NCBI GenBank assembly: GCA_020621405.1
Contig: JAHRYN010000002.1
Location: 547,676 to 611,675, forward strand
DNA from: Betaproteobacteria bacterium
GTDB lineage: Bacteria > Pseudomonadota > Gammaproteobacteria > Burkholderiales > Rhodocyclaceae
Length of the DNA stretch: 64,000 nucleotides
Reading direction: 5' to 3'
Shown: positions 17,424 to 33,800 of the stretch, piece by piece
How positions within the stretch are numbered: position 1 is the stretch's first letter
Layout of the letters: every line of letters begins with the position of its first letter
Translations under genes and position numbers: made by a program
Notes under the pieces: generated by a model
Seen by the model: only the letters and a program-made list of their open reading frames with translations
What the model was told of the DNA's origin: nothing
Database searches by the model: none

Positions 17424-19446
<2,023 letters not shown>

Positions 19447-19499
19447 GATCCGTGTGACACTGCACCTGACGTGACGGACGCCAACAGGGAGGACGTACT

Positions 19500-19943: not shown

Positions 19944-21104
19944 TCAGAGCTCGCAGCACACCAGCGGCACGCGCATCTCGTCGCTGCTGGTGCCGCCGTG
20001 CACGCCAATCAGACGATGCCGGCGCTCGTCGGGCATCGTGTCACGCAGCGTCCAGTCGGCCTTCATTTCCAGCGTGTAATCACCCAGCCGTTCGCGCAGA
20101 TGCGGATGCACCGCTCCGGGACCGAAACGGCCGGCTGCCAAGAGTTCCGACGACGGCCACGCCACACAGGCATGTTCCAGTGCCTGCAAGCCGCGCTCGA
20201 AATTCCCTGCCCGACCGGGTTTCACATGACAGAACACGGCACGCCGCTCGCCCGACAGCGGCCCGTCCAGACAGTCCGCGAACTCGGGAAAGTCCTCGAT
20301 CTCGATCAGACGCTGCGGCGGTGCATCGATGAAACCGTGATCCGCCGTCACCAGCAGCAGCGCCCCGCTGCCCGCCACGGACAGCGCCCACCGCCCGAGA
20401 GCCTCGTCCAGCGTGCGCAACAGTGCGCGAGCCTCGGCTGACGCTGTGCCGCGCTTGTGCGCGCAATGATCGAAGTCCGGCCAGTAGGCATAGACATACG
20501 AAGGCGGAGCAGGTGCGCGCAACGCCCGGTGCATCGCGTCCAGCATGCCGCCAACGCCGCTGTATCCGGTACGTCGGGCGCCGACGCTGTGCCGAAGATT
20601 GAAGGGTGAATCGACGATCTCGTCCGGCGATATCACCTGCGACGATCCCGGCAGCGACGCAAACAGCGGCGGCACGCGGCAGACCTGCGCCAGCACCTCG
20701 TCCTGCGTGCACGGCAGATCGCCACCATCACGCGCCGCGACCGGCAGGATGGCCAGCGTGCGCCCGTCGAGTCCCGCCTCGGAAAATCGCACGTGCCAGC
20801 CGGTCAGCCCGTGCGCGGCCGGAGCCTTTGCCGTCATGAAGGTCGTGATCGCTGCAGCCGTCGTCGATGGAAACACCGACGTCAGCGTCGCAGTCAGATG
20901 GCGGCGCAGGAAGCTGCCTTCCGGCAGCAGATCCAGCTGCGCCATGCCGACGCCGTCGAGCACCAGCAGGACGACGCTGCGCGCCGCATGCCAGCGGGAC
21001 GTGTCGACATCGCGCAGCCCGGCCCCGCCGGCCGCTCCGCCACGCGACGAAACCACGCTGTCCATCAGATCGAGAATCGACCCGCCTTCAAAATCCGGCC
21101 ACAT
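19944..21104 (-). CDS. alkaline phosphatase superfamily (nucleotide pyrophosphatase/phosphodiesterase-like) protein
   Basis: A 386-aa protein with no signal peptide. Family hallmarks are the metal-binding VVLLVLDGVG (Asp50), the nucleophile region FPSTTAAA (Thr81 likely), DFDHCAH, and TADHGF. The C-terminal GVHGGTSSDEMRVPL is typical of NPP-type members. The true substrate cannot be read from the sequence. It converges with the CBS-domain gene (12-base gap). The DNA upstream leads to the tRNA gene. Confidence 0.8.
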   Translation of the reverse strand: MWPDFEGGSILDLMDSVVSSRGGAAGGAGLRDVDTSRWHAARSVVLLVLDGVGMAQLDLLPEGSFLRRHLTATLTSVFPSTTAAAITTFMTAKAPAAHGLTGWHVRFSEAGLDGRTLAILPVAARDGGDLPCTQDEVLAQVCRVPPLFASLPGSSQVISPDEIVDSPFNLRHSVGARRTGYSGVGGMLDAMHRALRAPAPPSYVYAYWPDFDHCAHKRGTASAEARALLRTLDEALGRWALSVAGSGALLLVTADHGFIDAPPQRLIEIEDFPEFADCLDGPLSGERRAVFCHVKPGRAGNFERGLQALEHACVAWPSSELLAAGRFGPGAVHPHLRERLGDYTLEMKADWTLRDTMPDERRHRLIGVHGGTSSDEMRVPLVCCEL

Positions 21105-21262
21105 CGCCCCTCCCTGTCAGCCAACCCTCCGCAGGAACCCGAATCCCCCCCCCGTTTGATATAGTACCGCTCCCTTCCGAGGCCACCGGCCGTCCGGATG
21201 AGTCAGCGGATTCAGCCCTCCCGGTCGCCGGAGAATTGCGCCGCACAGATACGAAAAAACCG

Positions 21263-21282
21263 ACCGGCGCTGAAGCGCCGGT
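21263..21282 (-). terminator. hairpin with T-run on the minus strand
   Basis: ACCGGCGC / GCGCCGGT with a TGAA loop, preceded on the plus strand by AAAAAA (21253-21258). Read on the minus strand this is a stem followed by a T-run, so it would stop leftward transcription entering from beyond the tRNA gene. Confidence 0.4.
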
Positions 21283-21305
21283 ACGCAGCACACGCAAAGT
21301 TTGCC

Positions 21306-21384
<79 letters not shown>

Positions 21385-21390
21385 TCAAAG

Positions 21391-21423
21391 CAATGGGCCA
21401 ACCCATTTGGGGTTGGCCCATTG
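21391..21423 (+). terminator. intrinsic terminator of the tRNA gene
   Basis: A perfect 14-bp stem (CAATGGGCCAACCC with GGGTTGGCCCATTG, 5-base loop) starts 6 bases after the tRNA CCA and is followed by TTCTTCTGTTT. It is a strong stem with a moderate T-run. Confidence 0.8.
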
Positions 21424-21893
21424 TTCTTCTGTTTCATGTAGCCACGGTGTAGCCAGATTCCGTTGACAGCCACGAAGTTGTCGCATCGGCGACTCGACAG
21501 ACGCACGGAAGGGGACAAATGAATCCCCCGGAATCTCAAGTACACGGCGGCCTTTTGGCTTCCTGCTGGAACGGGACGATCTCCGATGTTCCGAGGGCAT
21601 CTTGTCGACGAAGCGCGAAAAGGCGCGATCACCAATACCGACAAACGAATTTGCCCTGTGGTGGTCCCCAAGGACAAAGCGCCCCGCCCATTCAGACAGA
21701 GGCTTTGCCCTTGATTCAGTCACAAGGGCCGTGATTCGGTCCGTGCGATTGCCACCGCACGATCACCGATGCGAAAACATCCTCCGGACGCGAAGACTGA
21801 CTTCCAGCACCCTGCAGAGGCAGTACACCGCCACATTCCCGCGCGGTCATTCCGGGATCGTGTCACACACCACGGGTCTCTCGGGGCCGAAAA
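21424..21893. other. non-coding or decayed stretch downstream of the tRNA
   Basis: About 470 bases with no gene I can support. Overlapping short frames exist on both strands (up to about 110 codons), but none shows a recognisable domain, a good ribosome binding site or codon use like the neighbours. Composition is less GC-rich than the surrounding genes. A decayed mobile-element insertion at the tRNA 3' end is possible, but I see no integrase and no convincing att repeat. Confidence 0.35.
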
Positions 21894-22274
21894 TCACTCC
21901 TTGTCGAGAACGACAGTGACTTCTTCGGGGTAGCGATACATGGCACCGGTGATCATGTCGGTGATCCCTAAGTCCAGCAGCACTCCGGTCACCCCTGCGC
22001 CCGTGGCACCACTGACGACTCTGGATGTTTTCTGTACATAGCCCGGTGCCGCACAGACGACGATGATGTCGTCCTTGTCCTTTCCGACCTGGATCGTATT
22101 GGATGTCGTACTGATGCTTCCAAGCTTGCCATCCCCGACACGAGTGATGTCGCACTTCGATTCCTTGGGCTCAAGTTTGAACGCAATGATCTGTTGCGTT
22201 CCCTGCGTAACGGTCGCGCAGCCGGGCAGAAGTGAAGCCGCCGCAAGCACAAGGAAAGTACCGTGTAATTTCAT
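21894..22274 (-). CDS. putative small lipoprotein
   Basis: A 126-aa protein with signal peptide MKLHGTFLVLAAASLLPGC; the lipobox LLPGC puts the lipidated Cys at residue 19. The mature part begins CATVTQGTQQ, contains a PEGA-like segment (VVCAAPGYVQKTSRVV) and a Gly/Ala-rich hydrophobic stretch (GATGAGVTGVLLDLG). This pattern is common in proteobacterial envelope lipoproteins of unknown function. I use the ATG at 22274, which has AGGA six bases upstream; an earlier in-frame start at 22292 would spoil the signal peptide. Base composition is less GC-rich than the neighbours, suggesting acquired DNA. Confidence 0.75.
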   Translation of the reverse strand: MKLHGTFLVLAAASLLPGCATVTQGTQQIIAFKLEPKESKCDITRVGDGKLGSISTTSNTIQVGKDKDDIIVVCAAPGYVQKTSRVVSGATGAGVTGVLLDLGITDMITGAMYRYPEEVTVVLDKE

Positions 22275-22590
22275 TGCCAATCCTTTTTCCAATTGTCGGA
22301 TCCGCGATTTTTCGGAGCACCGAGCCTGCCGCTTTGCAGACAGGTCGATGCATTCGGGCCTCCGGGTCGCGGCGGATGGTAGTCGATGAAATTTTCTGGC
22401 CCCTTCACGCAGCCATTGGGATTACGACCTTATGACTACGAACTCCTCCGCGAGCATCTTGCGACAGCCCACTCTCCATAGGCCAAGTGTTGCGACGCTT
22501 TGATCACCGTCAAGCCTTGGCCCGAGTGTGCCGTCAGACGTGACGCGTTGCGGCACACTTCATGAACGGACGATTCGGGCGGGATAAATC
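22275..22590. other. intergenic region without recognisable gene
   Basis: About 315 bases between divergent genes. It is AT-richer than average, especially 22275-22320 and 22385-22440. It presumably contains promoters for the lipoprotein gene and the metallo-beta-lactamase-fold gene, but I see no clear hexamer pair, operator or hairpin. Confidence 0.3.
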
Positions 22591-23361
22591 ATGGCAGTCG
22601 AGCTCTACAACGATGGCAGGCATGTCTGCCTCGCCTTCTACGATCTGGTCGACGAGACCGCGGACCACGCGGTGCAGAGCAACCAGTTCCTCGTGGTCGA
22701 TGACGGGCACGGCGCTCTGATCGATCCCGGTGGCAACATGACCTACACTGGGCTGATGATGGGCATGCAGCGTCACTTCCCGTCGAAGGACCTCGACCTG
22801 ATCCTCGCCTCGCACGCAGACCCGGACATCATTGCGTCGATGAACAAGTGGATGGTCTCGACCTCGTGCAAGGTCATGATCTCCCAACTGTGGACGCGCT
22901 TTCTGCCGCACTTCACCAGCGGCCGCGACTACACGTCGCGCATCGTCGGCATTCCGGACGAAGGCATGCGCATTTCGCTCGGCGGCAGCGAAATGCTGGC
23001 GCTGCCCGCCCACTTCATGCATTCGGAAGGCAACTTCCAGTTCTACGATCCGGTATCGAAAATCCTGTTTTCCGGCGACATGGGCGCATCGATGATCGAC
23101 CAGCGCGACGCATCGTTGCCGGTGGCCGACTTCGATGCACACGTACCACGGATGTTCGGCTTCCACCGGCGCTACATGGTGGCGAACAAGATCTGTCGCT
23201 ACTGGGCGAACATGGTGCGCACGCTGGACATCGACATGATCGTGCCGCAGCACGGCGCCCGTTTCGAAGGGCGCGACATGGTCAATCGCTTCGTGGACTG
23301 GATCGAAAACCTGCCGTGCGGCGTCGACCTGATGACGCAGTCGCAGTACCGGGCGCCCTGA
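22591..23361 (+). CDS. metallo-beta-lactamase-fold protein resembling diiron oxygen-binding/flavodiiron domains
   Basis: A 256-aa cytoplasmic protein with a metallo-beta-lactamase fold. The metal motif reads HADPDI rather than the hydrolase HxHxDH. Further ligand candidates are HFMHSEGNFQFYD, LFSGDMGASM and the late His in VPQHGARF. This ligand pattern is that of flavodiiron-type and ODP (oxygen-binding diiron) proteins, not of beta-lactamases. No flavodoxin or rubredoxin domain is attached. The start ATG at 22591 has only a weak GGGA upstream. An O2 or NO-related role is inferred from the motif only. Confidence 0.72.
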   Translation: MAVELYNDGRHVCLAFYDLVDETADHAVQSNQFLVVDDGHGALIDPGGNMTYTGLMMGMQRHFPSKDLDLILASHADPDIIASMNKWMVSTSCKVMISQLWTRFLPHFTSGRDYTSRIVGIPDEGMRISLGGSEMLALPAHFMHSEGNFQFYDPVSKILFSGDMGASMIDQRDASLPVADFDAHVPRMFGFHRRYMVANKICRYWANMVRTLDIDMIVPQHGARFEGRDMVNRFVDWIENLPCGVDLMTQSQYRAP

Positions 23362-23421
23362 CGGCGCATCGGCGTGATGTGACGTCAAGCCTGGTCACAA
23401 ATCCAAAGTTCGCCGTATCAC

Positions 23422-23438
23422 TGTCGGATCTATTGACA
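23422..23438 (+). promoter_or_regulatory. TGTC-N9-GACA inverted repeat upstream of a sigma-54 promoter
   Basis: TGTC (23422-23425) and GACA (23435-23438) form a short dyad 66 bases upstream of the -24 element of the PEP-CTERM gene. That is a suitable place for an NtrC-type activator site. Only eight positions are specified, so chance occurrence is possible. Confidence 0.3.
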
Positions 23439-23503
23439 CACCTGTTGGCAATCCCGTGCGGCAGCGGTCCAAGCCTTTGGTTTTATTTATCAAATCGGAA
23501 GCT

Positions 23504-23519
23504 TGGCATGGAAAATGCT
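23504..23519 (+). promoter_or_regulatory. sigma-54 (-24/-12) promoter of PEP-CTERM gene
   Basis: TGGCATGGAAAATGCT matches the RpoN consensus TGGCACG-N4-TTGCW, with the invariant GG and GC dinucleotides separated by exactly 10 bases. Transcription would start near 23530, about 57 bases before the ATG of the PEP-CTERM gene. Confidence 0.72.
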
Positions 23520-23586
23520 CGCTGATTGCGGCGTGTATTTTCGTGATGCCCCTTCACAAGTCACTCGCAAAAACGGAGACAACAGC

Positions 23587-24540
23587 ATGAATACCCGGAA
23601 AAGCGCAGCAGCGCATGGCCTGCACAACCGCGCGCTTGCGGAATGCGCCTTGCTGGCTCTCTTCACCACGTTAACGCTCGGGTCGAATACGGCCGTTGCC
23701 GCGACCTAAGCAAGCGTTCAGATAGATGGCATTGACGGCGGCCTGGTAAACAAGTCGAGCACGCTCGCCAACGACCCGGTCGCTCTGGGCGGGACCGGCA
23801 CGGGCGTCCGTGGCGGCACGACATCCGCGTCCGCAGCCGCAAGCGCCACCGAGGGCCTGATCATCGTTGACACCTCGGCTGCCAGCACCGCGATCAGCCA
23901 CATCAACAGCACGACGTCTGCCAACGCCTACGCGACCGCCAGATGGTCCGACGTGATCACCATCGACGCCGGAGCACTCAACGGAAATTTCGGCTATGTC
24001 AATGCATTGATCGACGTCAGCGGCGGCATCGGAGGCATGGCGAGTCCGGTCACCAACTACGGCGAGAGCAGCGACGCGAACATGCGGATTTCCGTTTACG
24101 GCCCAGGCTACAGTACCGGTCCCTATCCAACGGTCTTTTCGGCCACCGCGTCCGGCGCGCCCGGAAATTCCAGCACCAGCGCCATCGATCCGATCACCGA
24201 TCTGATCGTAAGAATCCCGGTCGTCTTCGGATACGGCACCACCATCGGATTTCAGCTTGAGGCCTTCTCGAAGGCCACCACCAACACCTACTTTTCAAGC
24301 AGCGGTGACATCGATGCGAAGGCCGGCACGGTAGCGTCGCTGAGATGGGCAGGTATCACAGGGGTATTCCGGAACGATGATTCGGCACTCACGAATTTTG
24401 CGGTGAGGTCGGAATCCGGGCTTGACTACAGCGTGGCGGTTCCGGCTCTGGCCGTTCCCGAACCTTCCGTCATTACGATGCTTCTGGCGGGACTGGGGAT
24501 TCTCGGAGTGGCTGCGCACCGTCGTCGCGAAGCGACGTGA
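23587..24540 (+). pseudogene. PEP-CTERM exported protein interrupted by an in-frame stop
   Basis: The ATG at 23587 (GGAG at 23575-23578) opens a 40-residue signal-peptide region ending AVAAT. Codon 41 is TAA (23707-23709). The same frame then continues open for 276 codons to 24540. It reads first as a Ser/Thr/Ala/Gly-rich secreted domain and then as the PEP-CTERM sorting tail VPEPSVITMLLAGLGILG followed by HRRR. PEP-CTERM proteins are handled by exosortase and usually reach the cell surface or extracellular matrix. One base change (for example CAA or GAA to TAA) explains the interruption. It could be a recent pseudogene, a sequencing error, or readthrough. A sigma-54 promoter lies upstream. 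Confidence 0.8.
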
Positions 24541-24693
24541 TTTCCGGAAGCCCGATGAATGCCGTGATTCGCGGCTCATCGGACGGGACAAGGCCGGGAT
24601 CGGATTGAATGCAGGCTCTGTTGCAGTCAGTACTGATCCCGGCAGTAACCCGATCTTCACCAACCCGCCGCGCGCGGACGTCCAGACGGCACT

Positions 24694-25038
24694 TCAGCGC
24701 CCCTCTACTTCCAGCGCGTTGTCGACGTGACGTACGCCGGGCACTGCCATGGCGGTCTGCAGTGCGCGCGCCAACTGCGCTGCATCGAGCACGACGCCGG
24801 ACAAGGTGACGTGGCCGTCGCGTGCCGCCACGGCCACATAGCTTCCCTGCATGCCGTCGTCGGCGCCCAGCGCGGCCTTGACCTCGTTCTGCAGCCCGCG
24901 GTCGCGATCTTCGGTCACCGGTTCCTGCTTGCTCGCGGCGGTGACACTCGCCAGGCCCGCGGCCTGCGCCGGGGTGCAGATGGAATAGGCGATCGCGGTC
25001 GTGGTCAGTACGGTGGCGATGGTGTGACGGGTAATCAT
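24694..25038 (-). CDS. periplasmic BON-domain protein
   Basis: A 114-aa protein with a signal peptide (cleavage near AQAA) and one BON domain (about residues 50-112). The domain reads LQNEVKAALGADDGMQGSYVAV, then ARDGHVTLSGVVLDAAQLARAL, then VPGVRHVDNALEV. BON domains are thought to bind phospholipid or envelope surfaces, as in OsmY. I chose the ATG at 25038, which has AGGAGA upstream. Its promoter is an excellent -24/-12 element, and it lies just downstream of the GlrR-like activator gene. Confidence 0.85.
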   Translation of the reverse strand: MITRHTIATVLTTTAIAYSICTPAQAAGLASVTAASKQEPVTEDRDRGLQNEVKAALGADDGMQGSYVAVAARDGHVTLSGVVLDAAQLARALQTAMAVPGVRHVDNALEVEGR

Positions 25039-25092
25039 GGCGGGTCTCCTCTGCCGTTGTCGGGTGCGCGGCGATGCCGGCGTGATGTGTTC

Positions 25093-25108
25093 AGCACATG
25101 CCGTGCCA
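25093..25108 (-). promoter_or_regulatory. sigma-54 (-24/-12) promoter of BON-domain gene
   Basis: On the minus strand the sequence is TGGCACGGCATGTGCT, matching TGGCACG-N4-TTGCW with one mismatch in the core and correct GG-N10-GC spacing. Transcription would start near 25082, about 44 bases upstream of the ATG. Confidence 0.8.
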
Positions 25109-25231
25109 AAGCACACATCCCTTGTTTTTCAATGACCTGCAACCACTCCAGCGACGCATCCGTCGTGCTCCAGCGACGCCCGGGCTGCGGCACGCCGTCA
25201 AAGCCTGCAATGCCGCCGGCCGACGCTGTCG

Positions 25232-26604
<1,373 letters not shown>

Positions 26605-26608
<4 letters not shown>

Positions 26609-27051
26609 CGCGGCACGGCACGTGTCGGCGCACGCGCCGGCAAGCGGCGCTCGATGTCGGCCAGTGCATCGACCTTGCGTTGCAGATCCTCGCCGCGTTG
26701 CTGGCTGTCCTTGAGCTGCTGGCCGGTGCGTTCGAGCTGCTGCGTCAGCCGCAGGTTGGCGGCGTCCAGCCGCTGGCGTTCGGTCACCTGATCCAGCAGC
26801 GCACGCGCATACGGATGCAGCGCACGCGACGCATCATCGCCGGCGGCCAGCAGTGCCTCGAGCAGCGTGCGTGCGCGCGCCGGATTGCCGGTGCGCGGAT
26901 GCGCCGCCTGTATCGCCTGCTGCAGCTGACGTTCCGCCGCATCGCTGCGTGGCTCGACCGGCGCCGGCGGCGCAGGCGTCGGTGACGCCTTCGGGGGCGA
27001 CGCACAGGCGCCGAGTCCCAGCGCAAGCGTGACGATCATCGATCGCAGCAT
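26605..27051 (-). CDS. qseG: QseG-like outer-membrane lipoprotein
   Basis: Small lipoprotein (about 148 aa) between the kinase and regulator genes, as QseG (YfhG) is in E. coli, where it signals to the kinase. Lipobox LGAC follows a short hydrophobic stretch. The mature part has a Pro-rich linker (SPTPAPPAPVEP), then helices with coiled-coil character (LRLTQQLERTGQQLKDSQQRGEDLQRK, split here for length at residue-level reading). The start is uncertain: ATG at 27051 gives a compact lipoprotein signal, while an ATG at 27078 overlaps the kinase gene. The symbol rests on synteny and size more than on sequence. Confidence 0.75.
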
Positions 27052-27067
27052 CGGCGTACGGAAAAAA

Positions 27068-28465
27068 TCAACTGGCATGGGGCAGCTCTATCCTGAAGTG
27101 GGCGCCGCGCTCGGATGGCATGACGATGGCACGGCCGCCATGGGCGGCGATGAATTCGCGCACGATGGCCAGACCGAGTCCGTTGCCCTTGTCCGGCCGC
27201 GGTGCGCGGCGACTGCCGCAGAAGAAGGGTTCGAATATGCGCTCGACGTCTTCCGGCGCCACGCCCGGCCCCTCGTCCAGGCAGTCGATGCAGGTGCCCT
27301 GTTCGTCGGAACTCAGTTCCAGGCGCACCGTGCCGCCATGCGGACTGAATGCGATGCCGTTGGTCACCAGATTGCTCAGCGCGATGCGCAGCTTGGCCGC
27401 ATCGCCACGTACCGGCGGCGCGTAGCCGGACACGACCAGCTGCACGTCCTTGACCCGCGCCTGCAGCTTGAGGTCAGCGGTGACTTCGCGTACCAGCGCA
27501 CGCAGCGCTGTCGGGCGCAGTTCTAGATGGCGCGCGTCGAATTGGGTGGCGTTGTAGCCGATCAGCTGTTCGATGCGCTCCTGCAGCGCGCGGGCATTGG
27601 TATCGAGAATGCCGCTGACTTCCAGCTGTTCGCCGTTGAGCCGGCCGAGCACACCGTCCTGCAGCAGCGCGATGCCTTCGCGCAGCGAGGCCAGCGGTGT
27701 CTTCAGTTCGTGCGACACATGGCGCAGCACGCGGTTGCGGTGCGCCTCGAGGTCGGCCAGGCGCTGGCGCAGCCATTCCAGCCGCTCGCCGAGCAGGCGC
27801 AGGTCGGCCGGACCACCGACCGACACCGGCGCGGCATAACTGCCCTCACCCAGCCGCGTGATGGCGCGCGCCACGGCCTTCAGCGGCCGCAGTATCCACC
27901 AGCCGGCCGCCAGCGCCAGCACGAGTGCCAGCAGTACCGCCGCCAGCACATGCCGGGCCAGCTGGTCGCGGCTGCGATCCAGCGTGTCGAGCAGTTCGGC
28001 GCTGTGCCGGTCGATGTGTTCGCGCACGCGCGCCGCGATCAGGTCGTTCAGCCCGGACAGCTCCGCCTCCGGCGGCGTGGCGGCATCGTCCGCAGCCAGC
28101 GGATCGAGCCCGCCACGCATCTGCCCGGCGAGTTCGCGCCAGCGCGCAATGACCGGCGTGGCCGGCAGCCCCCCCTCGATCACGCCCAGTGCCGCAAGCG
28201 CCTGGGTGTGCGCGTCGTCAAACCGTTCGCGCAGCGCCGGATCGCGCAGCACCGCGTACTGACGGGCACTGCGCGTCATGTCTATCGTGCGTTCGTCGAT
28301 CTGCTGCACCGCCGCCGACAGCCTGAGCGCGACGGCGCCGCCGTCGCGGCTGGCCTGTGCGAAGTCCTGCAGCATCATCCAGCCGCTCGCCGCGGCCGCA
28401 CCGAGCACACCGGCGATCAGCAGCACGGTCGCCAGCAACGTCGTGCGGAAGGAAAAGTGCGCCAT
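27068..28465 (-). CDS. glrK: GlrK/QseE-like sensor histidine kinase
   Basis: A 465-aa inner-membrane kinase. Membrane segment 1 is at about residues 8-28 and segment 2 at about 171-192, with a 140-residue helical periplasmic sensor between them. A HAMP domain follows, then HisKA with His252 in RHVSHELKTPL. The ATP-binding domain has the motifs NLVTNGIAFSP, DEGPGVAPED and GNGLGLAIV. It heads the kinase-lipoprotein-regulator operon and would phosphorylate the GlrR-like protein. In enterobacteria the system senses envelope stress. It is divergent from the bactofilin gene. Confidence 0.88.
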   Translation of the reverse strand: MAHFSFRTTLLATVLLIAGVLGAAAASGWMMLQDFAQASRDGGAVALRLSAAVQQIDERTIDMTRSARQYAVLRDPALRERFDDAHTQALAALGVIEGGLPATPVIARWRELAGQMRGGLDPLAADDAATPPEAELSGLNDLIAARVREHIDRHSAELLDTLDRSRDQLARHVLAAVLLALVLALAAGWWILRPLKAVARAITRLGEGSYAAPVSVGGPADLRLLGERLEWLRQRLADLEAHRNRVLRHVSHELKTPLASLREGIALLQDGVLGRLNGEQLEVSGILDTNARALQERIEQLIGYNATQFDARHLELRPTALRALVREVTADLKLQARVKDVQLVVSGYAPPVRGDAAKLRIALSNLVTNGIAFSPHGGTVRLELSSDEQGTCIDCLDEGPGVAPEDVERIFEPFFCGSRRAPRPDKGNGLGLAIVREFIAAHGGRAIVMPSERGAHFRIELPHAS

Positions 28466-28567
28466 GGGGAAGGTTCCGGTGTCGGGGTGACCGAGTCTAG
28501 GCAGCGCCGGCCGCCGCCGCGGTAAGGCTCGGTAAGCAAATGCAACAGAACGTTAAATCCATGTACC

Positions 28568-28585
28568 CGTCGTTACCCGGCGACA
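28568..28585 (+). promoter_or_regulatory. possible GlrR-type site upstream of bactofilin gene
   Basis: CGTC-N10-GACA, one mismatch from TGTC-N10-GACA, 154 bases upstream of the bactofilin -24 element. It has the same form and orientation relative to its promoter as the site near the BON-domain gene. It lies in the 341-base divergent region between glrK and the bactofilin gene. I see nothing else in that region besides the sigma-54 element. Confidence 0.3.
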
Positions 28586-28738
28586 CGCCGGAAACCCCGT
28601 GCGAGCAGTGTCCTGAAGCCGGCAACGCGCCGGTGCGTCGGGTACCGGCGACGGCTGGCCGCATGAATCGATGACCGGAAGGCGGGCCGGACGGCGCGTC
28701 CCACTCCAGATCATTGATTGCAAGCGACTTATCGAGAC

Positions 28739-28754
28739 CGGCACGGCACTTGCG
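28739..28754 (+). promoter_or_regulatory. sigma-54 (-24/-12) promoter of bactofilin gene
   Basis: CGGCACGGCACTTGCG matches the RpoN consensus TGGCACG-N4-TTGCW except for the first and last positions, with exact GG-N10-GC spacing. Transcription would start near 28765, about 42 bases upstream of the bactofilin ATG. Confidence 0.75.
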
Positions 28755-28806
28755 AAGTCGGTGTTCCCGGTGCACCAGTCGGCCCGGATACCTTCAAGGA
28801 GAAGAC

Positions 28807-29421
28807 ATGTTCAACAAGCCCGGCCTGTTCCCGAAAAACGCTGAATCCCCCGGCACGCGAACCATACGTCCGGCCGCCGGCATGCCGGCGCAGTCCGCTC
28901 ACCTGCCGCCGCCAGCCGGCACAGCACCGGCAATGTCGCCGGCACGCGACGCGCCACCTGCCTCGCTCACGCCGTCGCCTTCGGCGCCGGCGATCACCGA
29001 GGCGGCACGACCGGCCGACATGCCCGAACATGGCAGCCGCCTGATCGTCGGCCCGGACGTGAAACTCAAGGGCGCGGAAATCCTGGACTGCGACACGCTG
29101 GTGGTCGAGGGACGGGTCGAGGCGACCATGGACAGCCGGGTCATCCGCATCGCCGAACACGGTGCGTATTCGGGCACCGTCGGCATCGATGTCGCGGAAA
29201 TCCGCGGTCAGTTCGACGGCGAACTGACTGCGCGCAAGCAGCTGATCGTGCACGCGACCGGGCGCGTCAGCGGCAAGATCCGTTACGGCTCCATCCTGAT
29301 CGAGGAAGGCGGCGAAATTTCAGGCGACGTGCAGTCGCTGTCCGGCGCCGGCAAGGTCGCTGCAAAACCGGCGGCACGGGAGGCCGACGAGGTGCGGCCG
29401 CTGACCGCGCTCGCCGGCTGA
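28807..29421 (+). CDS. bactofilin-family cytoskeletal protein
   Basis: A 204-aa protein. The first 75 residues are a Pro/Ala/Ser-rich disordered tail. Residues about 78-185 form the bactofilin beta-helix domain (SRLIVGPDVKLKGAEI, DTLVVEGRVEATMDS, EIRGQFDGELTARKQLIV, VSGKIRYGSILIEEGGEISG). Bactofilins polymerise without nucleotide into filaments and often scaffold cell-wall or polar functions. The ATG at 28807 has AAGGAG at 28796-28801. An upstream in-frame start (28714) lies before the sigma-54 element and is unlikely. Confidence 0.88.
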   Translation: MFNKPGLFPKNAESPGTRTIRPAAGMPAQSAHLPPPAGTAPAMSPARDAPPASLTPSPSAPAITEAARPADMPEHGSRLIVGPDVKLKGAEILDCDTLVVEGRVEATMDSRVIRIAEHGAYSGTVGIDVAEIRGQFDGELTARKQLIVHATGRVSGKIRYGSILIEEGGEISGDVQSLSGAGKVAAKPAAREADEVRPLTALAG

Positions 29422-29432
29422 GCCCGGCACAT

Positions 29433-29453
29433 CCCCGCCGGTTCAGGGCGGGG
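29433..29453. terminator. GC hairpin between convergent bactofilin and efflux genes
   Basis: CCCCGCC and GGCGGGG with a 7-base loop lie between the two convergent stops. No T-run follows in either direction, so terminator function is doubtful. Confidence 0.25.
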
Positions 29454-30897
29454 TCGGTTCGCTCCGTCCCTGCCCTGCAGACGGCTCACCCCAGCCGCCG
29501 CCGAGCGCGGCGTACAGATTCACCACTTCAGCCAGCTGCGCCTGACGCGTGCGCACCAGCGCCAGCGATGCTTCATTGGCGGTGCGCTGCGCATCCAGCA
29601 CTTCCAGATAGCGTGAATAGCCGGCGTCGTAGCGCTTCTGCGCCAGCACCAGGCTGCGTGTCGCGGCATCCACCTGGGCCTGCAGCGCCGTGGCGCCCTG
29701 CGCATACTGCGCCGACGCGACCAGCGCATCGCGCACGTCGGTAAAGGCACTGCGTACCGCGGCGATATAGCCCGCCAGCGCCTGCTTCTGCTGCGCACTC
29801 GCCTGATCGACGCGCGCACTGCGCTTGCCGGCGTCGAACAGCGGCAGGTCGAGACCGATGCCCAGCGACCAGATGTTGGCCGGGCCGCTGAACAGGTCGG
29901 ACAGTTCGCGGCTCTGCGAGCCATAGTTGCCGGTCAGCGAAATCGACGGATACAGCGCCGCCTTCGCCACGCCGATCTGCGCGTTGGCGGCGGCCAGTTC
30001 GGCTTCCGCCTGCCGGACGTCGGGACGCGCATCGAGCAGCGACGACGGCAATCCGGCCGGCGGCAGTGGTGGCAGAGGCAGGTTGCGCAGGTCGCCCGGC
30101 GCGATGGCCAGATCGAGCTGGCCGGTCAGCAGGCCGAGCTGGTTTTCGGCGATGCCGCGGCTGCGCGCCAGATCGGCGATCTGCGCCTCGATCGCGGCAA
30201 CCGCGCCGCGCGCCTGTTCAACTTCCAGATCAGAGGCCAGGCCACGCTGCGCACGCGCGCGCAGGATGTCGACGTTGTCGCGACGGGTGGCCAGCGTATC
30301 GCGCGACAGCGCAAGCTGCGCGTCGAGCGCACGCAGGTTCAGATAGCTGCCGACCAGCTGGCTGACCAGCGTCAGTTCGACCGTGTCCTTCGCATAGCGC
30401 GTGCCGAGCGCCTGCGCGCGGGCGGCTTCGCTGGCGCGCCGCAGCTTGCCCCAGAAATCAAGTTCGAACGAGGTCGAGATCGAGGTCTGGAAATTCTTGC
30501 GATACAGCGGCGCCCCGGCCGGCACCGGCGCGCCGACACCGCTGATGCGCGACCGGCTGGCCGCAGCACCGAGACCGACGTCCGGAAACAGCGCCGCGCC
30601 AACTTCGCGCAGCACGCCGTCAGCCTGCTCGATGCGGGCGGCGGCACGCTGCACCGAAGTGTTTTCGACCAGCGCGCGGTCGACCAGCGCGTTGAGCTGC
30701 TCGTCGTTGAACTGCTTCCACCAGCCGCGCGCAACAGCGGCACCGGGCGCAGCGTCCTGAGCGGCAGCGTAGCGCTCAGGCAGCGCAACCGTCGGGCGCG
30801 CATAGTCCGGACCGGTCATGCAGCCGGACAGCAGCAGCGCGGCGGCCAGCGTTGCCAGCACGGGACGGAAGGGGCTTTGCAGCGGGATCATGTTCAT
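29443..30897 (-). CDS. RND efflux outer-membrane channel lipoprotein (OprM/NodT family)
   Basis: A 484-aa outer-membrane factor of a tripartite pump. The signal peptide ends in lipobox LLSGC (Cys near residue 26), and the mature protein begins CMTGPDYARP, typical of OprM relatives. Two tandem TolC-like repeats are visible, with FELDFWGKLRRASEAARAQ in the first and LDLPLFDAGKRSARVDQA in the second. The ATG at 30897 overlaps the stop of the RND pump gene (ATGA), indicating coupling. It is the last gene of the adaptor-pump-channel operon. Confidence 0.93.
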   Translation of the reverse strand: MNMIPLQSPFRPVLATLAAALLLSGCMTGPDYARPTVALPERYAAAQDAAPGAAVARGWWKQFNDEQLNALVDRALVENTSVQRAAARIEQADGVLREVGAALFPDVGLGAAASRSRISGVGAPVPAGAPLYRKNFQTSISTSFELDFWGKLRRASEAARAQALGTRYAKDTVELTLVSQLVGSYLNLRALDAQLALSRDTLATRRDNVDILRARAQRGLASDLEVEQARGAVAAIEAQIADLARSRGIAENQLGLLTGQLDLAIAPGDLRNLPLPPLPPAGLPSSLLDARPDVRQAEAELAAANAQIGVAKAALYPSISLTGNYGSQSRELSDLFSGPANIWSLGIGLDLPLFDAGKRSARVDQASAQQKQALAGYIAAVRSAFTDVRDALVASAQYAQGATALQAQVDAATRSLVLAQKRYDAGYSRYLEVLDAQRTANEASLALVRTRQAQLAEVVNLYAALGGGWGEPSAGQGRSEPTPP

Positions 30898-33800
30898 TGC
30901 GCGACCTCCCCGGCATGGCGCACCGCAGCCTTGCGGCCGCTGAGCCAGCTGTAGAACAGCGGGATGAAGATGGTGGCGACGAAGGTGGCGGCCAGCATGC
31001 CGCCGAACACGCCGGTGCCCATCGAACGGCGCGCTGCCGCACCGGCGCCGGTGGCGATCACCAGCGGCACCACACCGAGAATGAAGGCCAGCGCCGTCAT
31101 GCAGATCGGGCGGAAGCGCAGCCGTGCCGCCTCGAGCGACGCCTGCACCGCAGTCATGCCTTCCGCCTGCTTCTGCGCCGCGAATTCGACGATCAGGATG
31201 GCGTTCTTCGCTGCCAGTCCGACCAGCACGACCAGACCGATCTGGAAGTAGATGTCGTTCGGCATGCCGCGCATCCACACCGCCAGCAGCGCGCCGAGCA
31301 CGGCAAACGGAATGGCGAGGATGACCGCCAGCGGCAACGACCAGCGCTCATACTGCGCGGCAAGGATGAGGAACACCATGATGATGCCGAATGCCATGGC
31401 GATCACCGAGGTCATGCCGGTGCGTTTCTCCTGGTAGGCCTGTCCGGTCCATTCGAGACTGTAGCCGGCCGGCAGCACCTCGCGCGCCACCTGTTCGACG
31501 ACGTCGATCGCCTCGCCCGAACTGTGCCCCGGTGCCGAATTGCCGAGCACCTTGGCGGCGACGAAGCCGTTGAAGCGCTCGACCATTTCCGGTCCGACGA
31601 TGGTCTTCACCGTGATCACCGCCGACAGCGGAATCATCGCGCCGGTACTGGCGCGCACATACGGCTTGCCGAGATCTTCCGGATTCATGCGGTAGGCCGC
31701 GTCGGCGCTCAGCTGCACCTTGTAGGTCTTGCCCGAGCGGTTGAAGTCATTGACGTACAGCGTACCCATGGTCGCCTGCAGCGTGGCGTACACCGCGTCG
31801 AGCGGAATGCCCAACGACAGCGCCTTCGGCTCGTCGACCTCGACCGCGAGCTGGGGTGCGGACACGCGGAAGAAGCTGTTGAGGCCGGTGAGTTCGGCGC
31901 GCGCGCGCAGCGCATCGAGCAGCTGACCGGTGATGGCGGCCAGCTTGCGGGCGTCGGCATCCTCGCGCGCCTGCACATAGACCTCGAAACCGCCGGCCGT
32001 GCCCAGCCCCTGGATGGGCGGCGGATTGAAGATCAGCCCCATGCCGTCGGTCAGCTTCATGCCTTCGGCGGCGATCTTCTTCTGCAGGTCGTCGGCATTG
32101 GTCGTGCGCTCGCGCCACGGCTTCATGACGACGAAGGTCATCGCCACGCTGGCGCGGTTGTTGCCGGTGATGAAGTCCATGCCGCGCACCATGAACACGT
32201 TCTCGACCGCCGGGTCGTCGTTGATCATGCGGCGCAGCTTTTCGAACGACTCTTCGGTGCGTGCCGCCGACGCGCCATCGGGCAGCGTGACGAAGCCGAA
32301 CAGATAGCCCTGGTCCTCGGACGGCACGAAACCGCCGGGCACCAGACGGAACAGGTAGCCGGCGCCGGCGAACAGCAGGCCGACCACCAGCACGCCGATC
32401 AGGCCATGCCGCAGCGTCAGGCCGACGGTGCCGGTATAGAGCCGGGTCAGCCAGTCGAAGCCGCGGTTGAATGGCCGGAACAGTTTCGACTCGCCCTCGT
32501 GACCGTTGAGCATCAGCGCGCACAGCGCCGGCGTCAGCGTCAGTGCGACCACGCCGGAAATGGTGACCGACACCGCCACCGTCGCGGCGAACTGCTGGTA
32601 GAGCTTGCCGGCGATGCCGCCTAGAAAAGCCACCGGAATGAACACCGCGTCGAGCACCAGCACCATCGCAACCAGCGCACCGGATGTCTCGCGCATCGCC
32701 TCGAACGCGGCTTCCTTCGGCGTGCGGCCGAATTCGCGCATCTGGCGCTCGACGTTCTCGAGCACCACGATGGCGTCATCGACCACGATGCCGATCGACA
32801 GCACCATCGCGAACAGCGTCAGCGTATTGATCGAGAAGCCGAAGGCCCACAGGCCGGCGAAGGTGCCGATCAGCGACACCGGCACCGCGATCAGCGGAAT
32901 CAGCGTCGCGCGCCAGCTCTGCAGGAACACGAACACCACCAGCACGACCAGTATCGTGGCTTCGGCCAGCGTATGCGTCACCTCGCGGATCGACTCGCTG
33001 ATGAAGCGCGTGGTGTCGTTCGGGATGATGAATTCCAGGCCTTCCGGCATGCGCGTCGACAGCTCGGCCAGCTTGGCGCGCACCGCCTTCGCGGTTTCGA
33101 GCGCGTTGGCGCCCGACTGCAGGTAGAGGCCGATGCCGGTGACCGGCGTGCCATTGACCTTGGTCGTGCGGTCGTAGCTTTCGGCGCCGAGTTCGATGCG
33201 CGCGACATCCTTCAGCCGCACCACGCCGGAAGCGCCGTCGGCACGCAGGATGATGTTCTCGAATTCCGGGATGGTCAGCAGCCGGCCCTTGGCGCTGACC
33301 GTGTAGGTCAGCTGCTGGCCGTTGGCCACCGGCTCCTGCCCGATGCGGCCGGCCGCATTCTGCGCGTTCTGCACGCGGATCGCCGCCGCGACATCGGTGG
33401 TCGTGATGCCCAGGCGCGCCATCACGTCCGGCTTCAGCCAGACGCGCATCGCGTACGGTGAGTCGAAGGTGAGCGCATCGCCGACGCCGGGCAGCCGGCG
33501 CAGTTCGTCGAGCACGTTCACCGACACGTAATTGCTCAGGAACAGCGTGTCGTACTCGCTCTTGCTCGACTTCAGCGCGGCGATCATCAGCAGGTTGTTC
33601 GAACGCTTGCGCACCACCAGCCCGCTGCGCCGCACGTCTTCCGGCAGCCGCGACTCGGCCACCGAAATGCGGTTGTTCACGGCAATCAGCGCGGTGTCGG
33701 GGTTGGTGCCGACCTCGAAGGTGAGCGTGATGCTGACCGTGCCGTTCGAGGTCGACGTCGAATTGAAGTACAGCAGGCCCTCGATGCCCGACAACTGCTC

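What the first reader, a model, noticed from the sequence alone, without database searches (positions are those of the whole stretch)
23504..28754. Three sigma-54 promoters cluster around a GlrK-QseG-GlrR-like system: a local envelope regulon
Strong -24/-12 elements precede a PEP-CTERM gene (23504-23519), a BON-domain periplasmic gene (25093-25108, minus strand) and a bactofilin gene (28739-28754). The sigma-54 activator operon lies between the last two. I find no comparable element before the other genes whose upstream regions I examined. The best-known GlrR targets in enterobacteria are the glmY sRNA and rpoE. Here the targets would be a cytoskeletal scaffold, a phospholipid-interacting protein and a surface protein, suggesting a different envelope-remodelling response.
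Basis: partly seen in the sequence, partly recalled or inferred. Interest (0 to 1): 0.72.

Follow-up and report, generated by a model that had tools for sequence, protein, structure and literature searches.

The report
GlrR switch driving neighbouring envelope genes
A bacterial stress-sensing switch, known in E. coli for turning on a small RNA, here appears to turn on the two envelope genes on either side of it, and related bacteria often keep the switch sites but change the genes they drive; the third gene named in the finding seems to belong to a different, already described switch.

Summary
Alone they are weak evidence: they rank 2nd, 1st and 9th in the window, and the consensus is not enriched over a reversed control genome-wide. 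Comparison settles it.

The sites before the BON and bactofilin genes are conserved in 12 of 12 and 13 of 13 genomes of the genus (Methyloversatilis by its named relatives). Each has an upstream pair of TGTC-N10-GACA palindromes, the enhancer GlrR/QseF uses at E. coli glmY. Enhancer plus promoter flanks glrK-qseG-glrR in 31 of 36 genomes examined (44 in 38.5 kb of flank, 6 in 334 kb elsewhere). The driven gene varies: BON, bactofilin, glycine-zipper, EF-hand.

The PEP-CTERM site is different. It has the PrsR-type box described by Haft 2006, shared with 13 of 51 other PEP-CTERM genes of this genome. The gene is absent from 12 of 12 congeners and has an in-frame stop after its signal peptide.

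So a local GlrR envelope regulon of two genes is supported; the third gene is not. No experiment supports it yet. New variant of a known kind.

The parts
27068..28465 (-). glrK/qseE-like sensor histidine kinase (HAMP, HisKA, HATPase_c)
   Evidence: Pfam; best solved structure 9m08 chain C, E 9.9e-55 over residues 10-462, from an entry whose chain A is 'Quorum-sensing regulator protein G'; columns of the QseG-contact arginines R70 and R73 are R in 33 of 33 and 31 of 33 genomes covered, window included
26605..27078 (-). qseG-like outer-membrane lipoprotein
   Evidence: Lipobox cysteine invariant in 14 of 14 aligned; profile's top three PDB matches are an 'outer membrane lipoprotein' (9m06) and two QseG chains, all weak, E 0.025-0.063; Pfam YfhG lipoprotein below cut-off
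25232..26608 (-). glrR/qseF response regulator, sigma-54 activator
   Evidence: Best NCBIfam model GlrR, 612.8 bits, under its cut-off; 57.9% identity to E. coli GlrR, HTH segment RNRTEFY shared
25227..25244 (-). Distal GlrR-type UAS of the BON promoter, CGTCGCGTCCTGACGACA (7/8 to TGTC-N10-GACA); overlaps the 3' end of glrR
25161..25178 (-). Proximal GlrR-type UAS of the BON promoter, CGTCGCTGGAGCACGACG (6/8)
25093..25108 (-). sigma-54 -24/-12 promoter of the BON gene, TGGCACGGCATGTGCT
   Evidence: Best of 1301 sites in the window; GG and GC aligned in 12 of 12 genomes of the genus that have the gene
24694..25038 (-). BON-domain protein with signal peptide-like N-terminus (114 aa)
   Evidence: Pfam BON 7.1e-14; behind glrR in 11 of 12 congeners
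28568..28585 (+). Distal GlrR-type UAS of the bactofilin promoter, CGTCGTTACCCGGCGACA (7/8)
28636..28653 (+). Proximal GlrR-type UAS of the bactofilin promoter, CGTCGGGTACCGGCGACG (6/8)
28739..28754 (+). sigma-54 -24/-12 promoter of the bactofilin gene, CGGCACGGCACTTGCG
   Evidence: Weak by sequence alone (rank 9); GGCAC and TTGC aligned in 13 of 13 genomes of the genus
28807..29421 (+). bactofilin (204 aa)
   Evidence: Pfam Bactofilin 1e-16; divergent from glrK in 12 of 12 congeners
23422..23438 (+). PrsR-type box (Haft 2006 motif 1-like), TGTCGGATCTATTGACA, 65 nt before the promoter; not part of the GlrR system
23504..23519 (+). sigma-54 -24/-12 promoter of the PEP-CTERM gene, TGGCATGGAAAATGCT; assigned to the PrsR regulon, not to GlrR
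23587..24540 (+). PEP-CTERM gene interrupted by TAA at 23707-23709; probable pseudogene or sequence error

Best explanation
[quoted passage not shown] An envelope signal passes through the lipoprotein QseG to the kinase GlrK, which phosphorylates GlrR. GlrR binds a pair of TGTC-N10-GACA palindromes (66 and 68 bp apart here) lying 52-153 bp upstream of a -24/-12 promoter, and remodels sigma-54 RNA polymerase there. That switches on a small secreted BON-domain protein (just downstream of glrR) and a bactofilin scaffold (divergent from glrK). Shown here by computation: the operon, the promoters, the enhancers, their conservation and their resemblance to E. coli glmY. Inferred: binding, phosphorylation, activation, and that the output remodels the envelope. 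The PEP-CTERM gene with the third promoter belongs to the separate PrsK-PrsR regulon and is probably not functional in this sequence.
For: Gene order bactofilin/HK/QseG/GlrR is kept in 12 of 12 congeners, with BON behind glrR in 11 of 12. Both promoters are conserved in the genus. A UAS of at least 7/8 lies upstream of 26 of 26 promoters found downstream of glrR and of 15 of 15 bactofilin promoters; letter shuffles give 1.5 and 1.1 on average, and other spacers from 6 to 14 give at most 6 and 5. Composite UAS plus promoter: 44 in 38.5 kb of glr flanks, 6 in 333.7 kb elsewhere of the same loci, 31 of 36 genomes in at least one flank. YGTCG-N8-CGACR occurs 7 times in the window against 1.35 expected (0 of 100 shuffles reach 7), and 4 of the 7 are the two pairs. 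E. coli K-12 glmY has the same UAS three times and a -24/-12 site; the GlrR HTH segment RNRTEFY is shared by E. coli and this genome, while the genome's PrsR differs. In genome G022 a bactofilin sits directly behind glrR under such a promoter. Class-wide, with wider limits, 18 of 36 glr loci have the element in a flank (19 in 46.0 kb against 10 in 236.7 kb elsewhere).
Against: No expression or binding data. In the window the palindromes are degenerate (7/8 and 6/8 in each pair) and the bactofilin -24/-12 site is weak. The UAS alone is not enriched in the genome (67 against 72 for the control), and 15 of 15 such places fetched elsewhere in the genome have no promoter beside them. The composite patterns barely exceed their reversed controls in total (43 against 35, and 25 against 24, in 13 genomes). 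5 of 36 genomes have no element within the flanks scanned (one has it 568 bp away, one contig ends at glrR), and 18 of 36 loci of the wider class lack it. GlrR scores below the NCBIfam equivalog cut-off and QseG below the Pfam cut-off. 3 of 51 PEP-CTERM genes also show a GlrR-like UAS with a loose promoter. Thresholds were set after a first look, and the UAS shuffles keep base composition only.
Confidence: 0.85

Rival explanations
1. All three promoters form one GlrR envelope regulon.
For: All three have -24/-12 elements and lie within about 5.3 kb around glrR. 3 of 51 other PEP-CTERM genes show a GlrR-like UAS with a loose promoter (shuffles 0.1).
Against: The PEP-CTERM promoter is not among the TGTC-N10-GACA composites of the window but has the 17-nt PrsR-type box at the described spacing; a PrsR above cut-off is encoded; the gene has no match in 12 of 12 congeners.
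Confidence: 0.05
2. Sites 25093 and 28739 are sigma-54 promoters driven by another sigma-54 activator; GlrR is only a neighbour.
For: The PrsR model matches 52 places in this genome (receiver or sigma-54-activator proteins), so other candidate activators exist.
Against: The UAS matches the E. coli GlrR/QseF enhancer and lies beside glrR in many families, and the GlrR HTH segment is conserved with it.
Confidence: 0.07
3. The elements are chance matches in a GC-rich genome.
For: Pattern counts do not exceed reversed controls genome-wide; the bactofilin site scores like several other window sites.
Against: Alignment of both promoters across the genus, spacer-specific UAS and positional enrichment.
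Confidence: 0.02

Closest known systems
GlrK-QseG-GlrR (QseE-QseG-QseF) of Escherichia coli and other Enterobacteriaceae
   Same: Same three genes in the same order; same HTH segment; same enhancer TGTC-N10-GACA (published as TGTN12ACA, PMC6075780, passages read) with a -24/-12 promoter; a direct target adjacent to the operon (glmY there).
   Different: Predicted targets here are two protein genes, BON and bactofilin; no GlmY match nearby and no such site before rpoE. Two UAS per promoter here, three at glmY.
PrsK-PrsR regulon of PEP-CTERM genes (Haft 2006, PMC1569441; pepA of Aquincola tertiaricarbonis, PMC9850573; passages read of both)
   Same: The PEP-CTERM promoter of the window has a motif 1-like box (17 nt), a 65-nt spacer and a -24/-12 site, as described (spacer mean 62.8, SD 10.6).
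   Different: A separate regulon with a different box (TGTCG-N7-TTACA); the window gene is interrupted, and its box ends TTGACA instead of TTTACA.
qseEGF loci across Pseudomonadota (mBio 2025, PMC12691602, passages read)
   Same: Reports the three-gene locus in Betaproteobacteria and the conserved QseE-QseG interface.
   Different: The passages I read concern QseE, QseG and their complex; they do not describe targets outside enterobacteria.

Membership tests
GlrR/QseF | Receiver + sigma-54 activator AAA+ + Fis-type HTH | tested here: met
   (HTH_8 at E 2.4e-4, 21.2 bits, just below its 22-bit cut-off; the other two far above)
GlrR/QseF | NCBIfam equivalog NF011695 above cut-off | tested here: not met
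   612.8 bits against 763, though by far the best of 108 models (next 406.8)
GlrR/QseF | HTH segment and enhancer of the E. coli protein | tested here: met
   (that RNRTEFY is the recognition helix is my reading, from no call)
GlrR/QseF | Operon with QseE-type kinase and QseG-type lipoprotein between them | tested here: met
   Order seen in the window; an ORF was picked between kinase and GlrR in 35 of 36 genomes (no kinase in the G020 stretch), and in G022 the automatic choice took what looks like a wrong frame
QseG | Pfam PF13942 (YfhG lipoprotein) or clear structural homologue | tested here: inconclusive
   15.5 bits against cut-off 27; 5 of 14 members match at E<=1, best 2e-5; top PDB profile hits 9m06 'outer membrane lipoprotein', 9m08 and 7x6f QseG, E 0.025-0.063
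GlrR regulon of enterobacteria | glmY next to the operon | tested here: not met
   No GlmY match in window 20000-32000 at E<=5
GlrR regulon of enterobacteria | sigma-54 promoter at rpoE | tested here: not met
   No site scoring >=9 and no UAS >=7/8 in 600 bp upstream of the RpoE gene at C12:514185
GlrR regulon of enterobacteria | Transcription depends on GlrR phosphorylation and RpoN | not testable with these tools
   needs mutants; RpoN itself is encoded
PrsR regulon (PEP-CTERM promoter) | 17-nt motif 1 ending TTTACA, 32-92 nt before a -24/-12 site, and PrsR in the genome | tested here: met
   TGTCGGATCTATTGACA, spacer 65 nt, last six letters one off; PrsR above cut-off; 13 of 51 other PEP-CTERM genes share it, shuffles 0.08

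The most novel reading that the evidence does not exclude
Across the Gammaproteobacteria in the broad sense (betaproteobacteria included), GlrR is a local activator: the enhancer-promoter cassette stays beside its operon, while the gene it drives is exchanged (BON, bactofilin, glycine-zipper membrane proteins, small EF-hand proteins, and in enterobacteria the sRNA glmY). glmY would then be one lineage's occupant of an old slot, and the ancestral output of the system would be a small envelope protein rather than amino-sugar control.
Probability: 0.5. Interest if true: 0.65.

Novelty: new variant of a known kind. Interest (0 to 1): 0.52.

Why it matters
GlrR/QseF is known mainly through glmY, rpoE and virulence in enterobacteria. 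A portable rule (TGTC-N10-GACA pair plus -24/-12 beside the operon) predicts its targets in many families at once and points to envelope proteins as a recurring output. It also gives bactofilin and BON genes a predicted activator, and it separates two sigma-54 regulons (GlrR and PrsR) that lie side by side here and use look-alike boxes.

Tried and rejected
Rejected: one regulon for all three genes (PrsR box instead). Rejected: the -24/-12 motif or the UAS alone as a genome-wide predictor (not above reversed controls; 0 of 15 fetched UAS places have a promoter beside them; the further places were not examined). Looked for distant GlrR targets with two composite patterns in 13 genomes (9 of the genus, own included, and 4 of the order): totals 43 against 35 and 25 against 24 for the reversed controls; the bactofilin promoter is hit in 9 of 9 and the BON promoter in 7 of 9 genomes of the genus; the remaining recurrent matches look coding by eye, so no further target is claimed. 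Looked for an rpoE or glmY link: none.

Papers. Searched for GlrR with bactofilin or BON (20 of 25 listed), QseF with regulon or betaproteobacteria (6 of 6), QseF/GlrR with OsmY or EF-hand (12 of 74), bactofilin with RpoN (15 of 702) and with sigma-54-dependent response regulators (none held). In the listings shown, and in the passages or section opened, I saw no report of GlrR driving bactofilin, BON or EF-hand genes; unlisted papers and most subscription journals were not seen. In Francke 2011 (PMC3162934) the words GlrR, YfhA and bactofilin do not occur.

Rows dropped. Of 61 genomes searched with GlrR the 36 with a match at E <= 2.3e-163 (own included) were studied; the other 25 had only matches of 1e-104 or weaker. 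The downstream count (26 of 36) covers loci with a -24/-12 site scoring >=11 within 300 bp; the bactofilin count (15) covers loci with a divergent bactofilin beside glrK. One search counts G046's element, 568 bp beyond glrR, as 'elsewhere'. One search uses wider limits than (UAS 40-230 bp, flanks 700-800 bp), and 10 of its 36 loci gave no kinase hit, so their upstream flank was not tested. In the PEP-CTERM comparison the window gene was set aside (51 of 52 tested), and 3 of the 51 were cut by the end of the fetched stretch.
Full report
What was checked. The three elements are present as described. With an approximate -24/-12 matrix (weights recalled) they are the 2nd, 1st and 9th best of 1301 GG-N10-GC sites in the window. 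Markov-simulated sequence gives 0.73 sites scoring at least 15 per 64 kb (2 observed) and 5.7 scoring at least 12 (9 observed). The consensus with two mismatches is no more frequent in the genome than its reversal (615 against 715). Sequence alone therefore supports the BON and PEP-CTERM sites modestly and the bactofilin site hardly at all.

Anatomy. On the minus strand lie a sensor kinase (27068-28465), a lipoprotein (26605-27078), a sigma-54-activating response regulator (25232-26608) and, 193 bp further, a BON-domain gene (24694-25038). A bactofilin gene (28807-29421) runs divergently from the kinase. The regulator's best NCBIfam model is GlrR (612.8 bits, under the equivalog cut-off of 763) and it is 57.9% identical to E. 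coli GlrR. The kinase's best solved relative is 9m08 chain C (E 9.9e-55), from an entry whose chain A is named as QseG. The arginines that bind QseG in the enterobacterial kinase (PMC12691602, passages) are R in 33 of 33 and 31 of 33 genomes covered at those columns, window included. The lipoprotein is QseG-like by position, lipobox (14 of 14) and weak profile matches.

Conservation in the genus. The nearest named relatives of the kinase are Methyloversatilis (8 of the 9 loci at 72-79% identity are so named, the ninth a 'Gammaproteobacteria bacterium' bin). In 12 of 12 congeners the order bactofilin / kinase / QseG / GlrR is kept, and BON follows glrR in 11 of 12. Alignments show the GG and GC bases conserved before BON (12 of 12 genomes with the gene, window included) and GGCAC with TTGC before bactofilin (13 of 13), against poorly conserved surroundings.

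The enhancer. The same alignments showed palindromes TGTCG-N8-CGACA. Counted systematically, TGTC-N10-GACA with at least 7 of 8 letters lies upstream of 26 of 26 promoters found within 300 bp downstream of glrR and of 15 of 15 bactofilin promoters. Letter shuffles give 1.5 and 1.1, and no other spacer from 6 to 14 exceeds 6 and 5. Often there are two, mostly 65-69 bp apart. In the window the pairs are 25161-25178 with 25227-25244, and 28568-28585 with 28636-28653. They are degenerate (7/8 and 6/8 each), but YGTCG-N8-CGACR occurs 7 times in the window against 1.35 expected, none of 100 shuffles reaching 7. The published QseF site is TGTN12ACA (PMC6075780, passages), and the same scan of E. coli K-12 finds three perfect palindromes and a -24/-12 site at glmY. 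The HTH segment RNRTEFY is shared by E. coli GlrR and all 36 genomes but two (RNRTDFY in G014 and G051), and differs in the genome's PrsR.

Position and cargo. The 36 genomes are the own one and 35 relatives, out of 61 searched, with a GlrR match at E <= 2.3e-163. Enhancer plus promoter occurs 44 times in 38.5 kb of glr flanks and 6 times in 333.7 kb elsewhere of the same loci; 31 of 36 genomes have it in at least one flank. Of the five without, one (G046) has it 568 bp beyond glrR and one contig (G016) ends at glrR; G033, G041 and G056 have none. The driven genes differ: BON in the genus, G020 and G049; divergent bactofilin in the genus, G023 and G049; bactofilin directly behind glrR in G022; glycine-zipper proteins in G014, G044 and G047, and below cut-off in G031; an EF-hand protein in G024; CxxCG membrane proteins without a Pfam match in G035, G046 and G058, with a similar unscanned one in G060; an unassigned membrane protein in G021. 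In G052, G057, G017 and G029 I could not name a convincing gene, and G051 has an unscanned secreted-looking protein. In a class-wide sample (140 genomes, 35 with a match at E <= 1e-130, own genome included; 36 loci fetched from the other 34), 18 of 36 loci have the element in a flank under wider limits (19 in 46.0 kb against 10 in 236.7 kb elsewhere). Small EF-hand proteins recur there (five above cut-off: G164, G169, G129, G174, G198), and a BON protein lies divergent from the kinase in G083. The negative half matters: either the rule is not universal or some of these regulators are not GlrR orthologues.

How local. Two composite patterns searched in 13 genomes exceed their reversed controls only slightly in total (43 against 35, 25 against 24), but the bactofilin promoter is hit in 9 of 9 and the BON promoter in 7 of 9 genomes of the genus; the other recurrent matches look coding by eye. 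None of 15 UAS-only places fetched elsewhere in the genome has a promoter beside it. The gene for RpoE has no such site within 600 bp. This fits a two-promoter regulon but does not prove it, because the patterns are strict.

The PEP-CTERM gene. The genome has 52 PEP-CTERM matches, 50 over the cut-off, and a PrsR over its cut-off. Haft 2006 described a 17-nt motif ending TTTACA about 63 nt before a -24/-12 site (passages). Such a box (at least 8 of 10 letters) plus promoter precedes 13 of 51 other PEP-CTERM genes here, against 0.08 in letter shuffles; 3 of the 51 upstream regions were cut short. The window gene has TGTCGGATCTATTGACA 65 nt before its promoter, the only such composite in the window at the limits used. 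Against a clean separation, 3 of the 51 PEP-CTERM genes also have a GlrR-like UAS with a loose promoter (shuffles 0.1); the two boxes resemble each other. The window gene has no match at E <= 1e-8 in 12 of 12 congeners; the only one among the 20 relatives searched is in G041 (32% identity). Its frame has a TAA directly after the signal peptide-like start. Since the rpoD gene of this window is also frameshifted and no match in the genome reaches the RpoD cut-off, a sequence error cannot be excluded.

Verdict. The system is a known kind; the targets, and the exchange of cargo around a fixed enhancer-promoter cassette, are what is new here as far as the searches named in Tried and rejected show.

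Noticed in passing
window 17424-19457: rpoD (housekeeping sigma factor) is split by a frameshift near codon 475, and no match in the genome reaches the RpoD cut-off (best 303.9 of 354 bits, the second piece of this gene). For an essential gene this suggests an assembly error.
   Followed up: partly
window 23707-23709: In-frame TAA right after the signal peptide-like start of the PEP-CTERM gene; pseudogene or sequence error.
   Followed up: partly
L033, L035, L036, L042, L043 (five congeners): GlrR reads GAFSGA instead of GAFTGA in the loop that contacts sigma-54 (role recalled); the window protein has GAFTGA. G021 and G016 also read GAFSGA.
   Followed up: no
L051, position 1957 when oriented with glrR on +, about 1 kb before the kinase: Two perfect TGTC-N10-GACA palindromes and a -24/-12-like site outside the scanned flanks in G024; no obvious gene identified behind it.
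   Followed up: partly
window 28934-28951: A further TGTC-N10-GACG palindrome inside the bactofilin coding sequence; probably chance.
   Followed up: no
L050, L054, L061 (behind glrR): A recurring small membrane protein with a CxxCG motif, with or without a glycine zipper; the three named here have no Pfam match at the limits used, so it may be an undescribed GlrR-linked family.
   Followed up: partly
window 22591-23361: ODP-family metallo-beta-lactamase-fold gene; an ODP homologue lies beside BON in 8 of 12 congeners, so the PEP-CTERM gene looks like an insertion between them.
   Followed up: no
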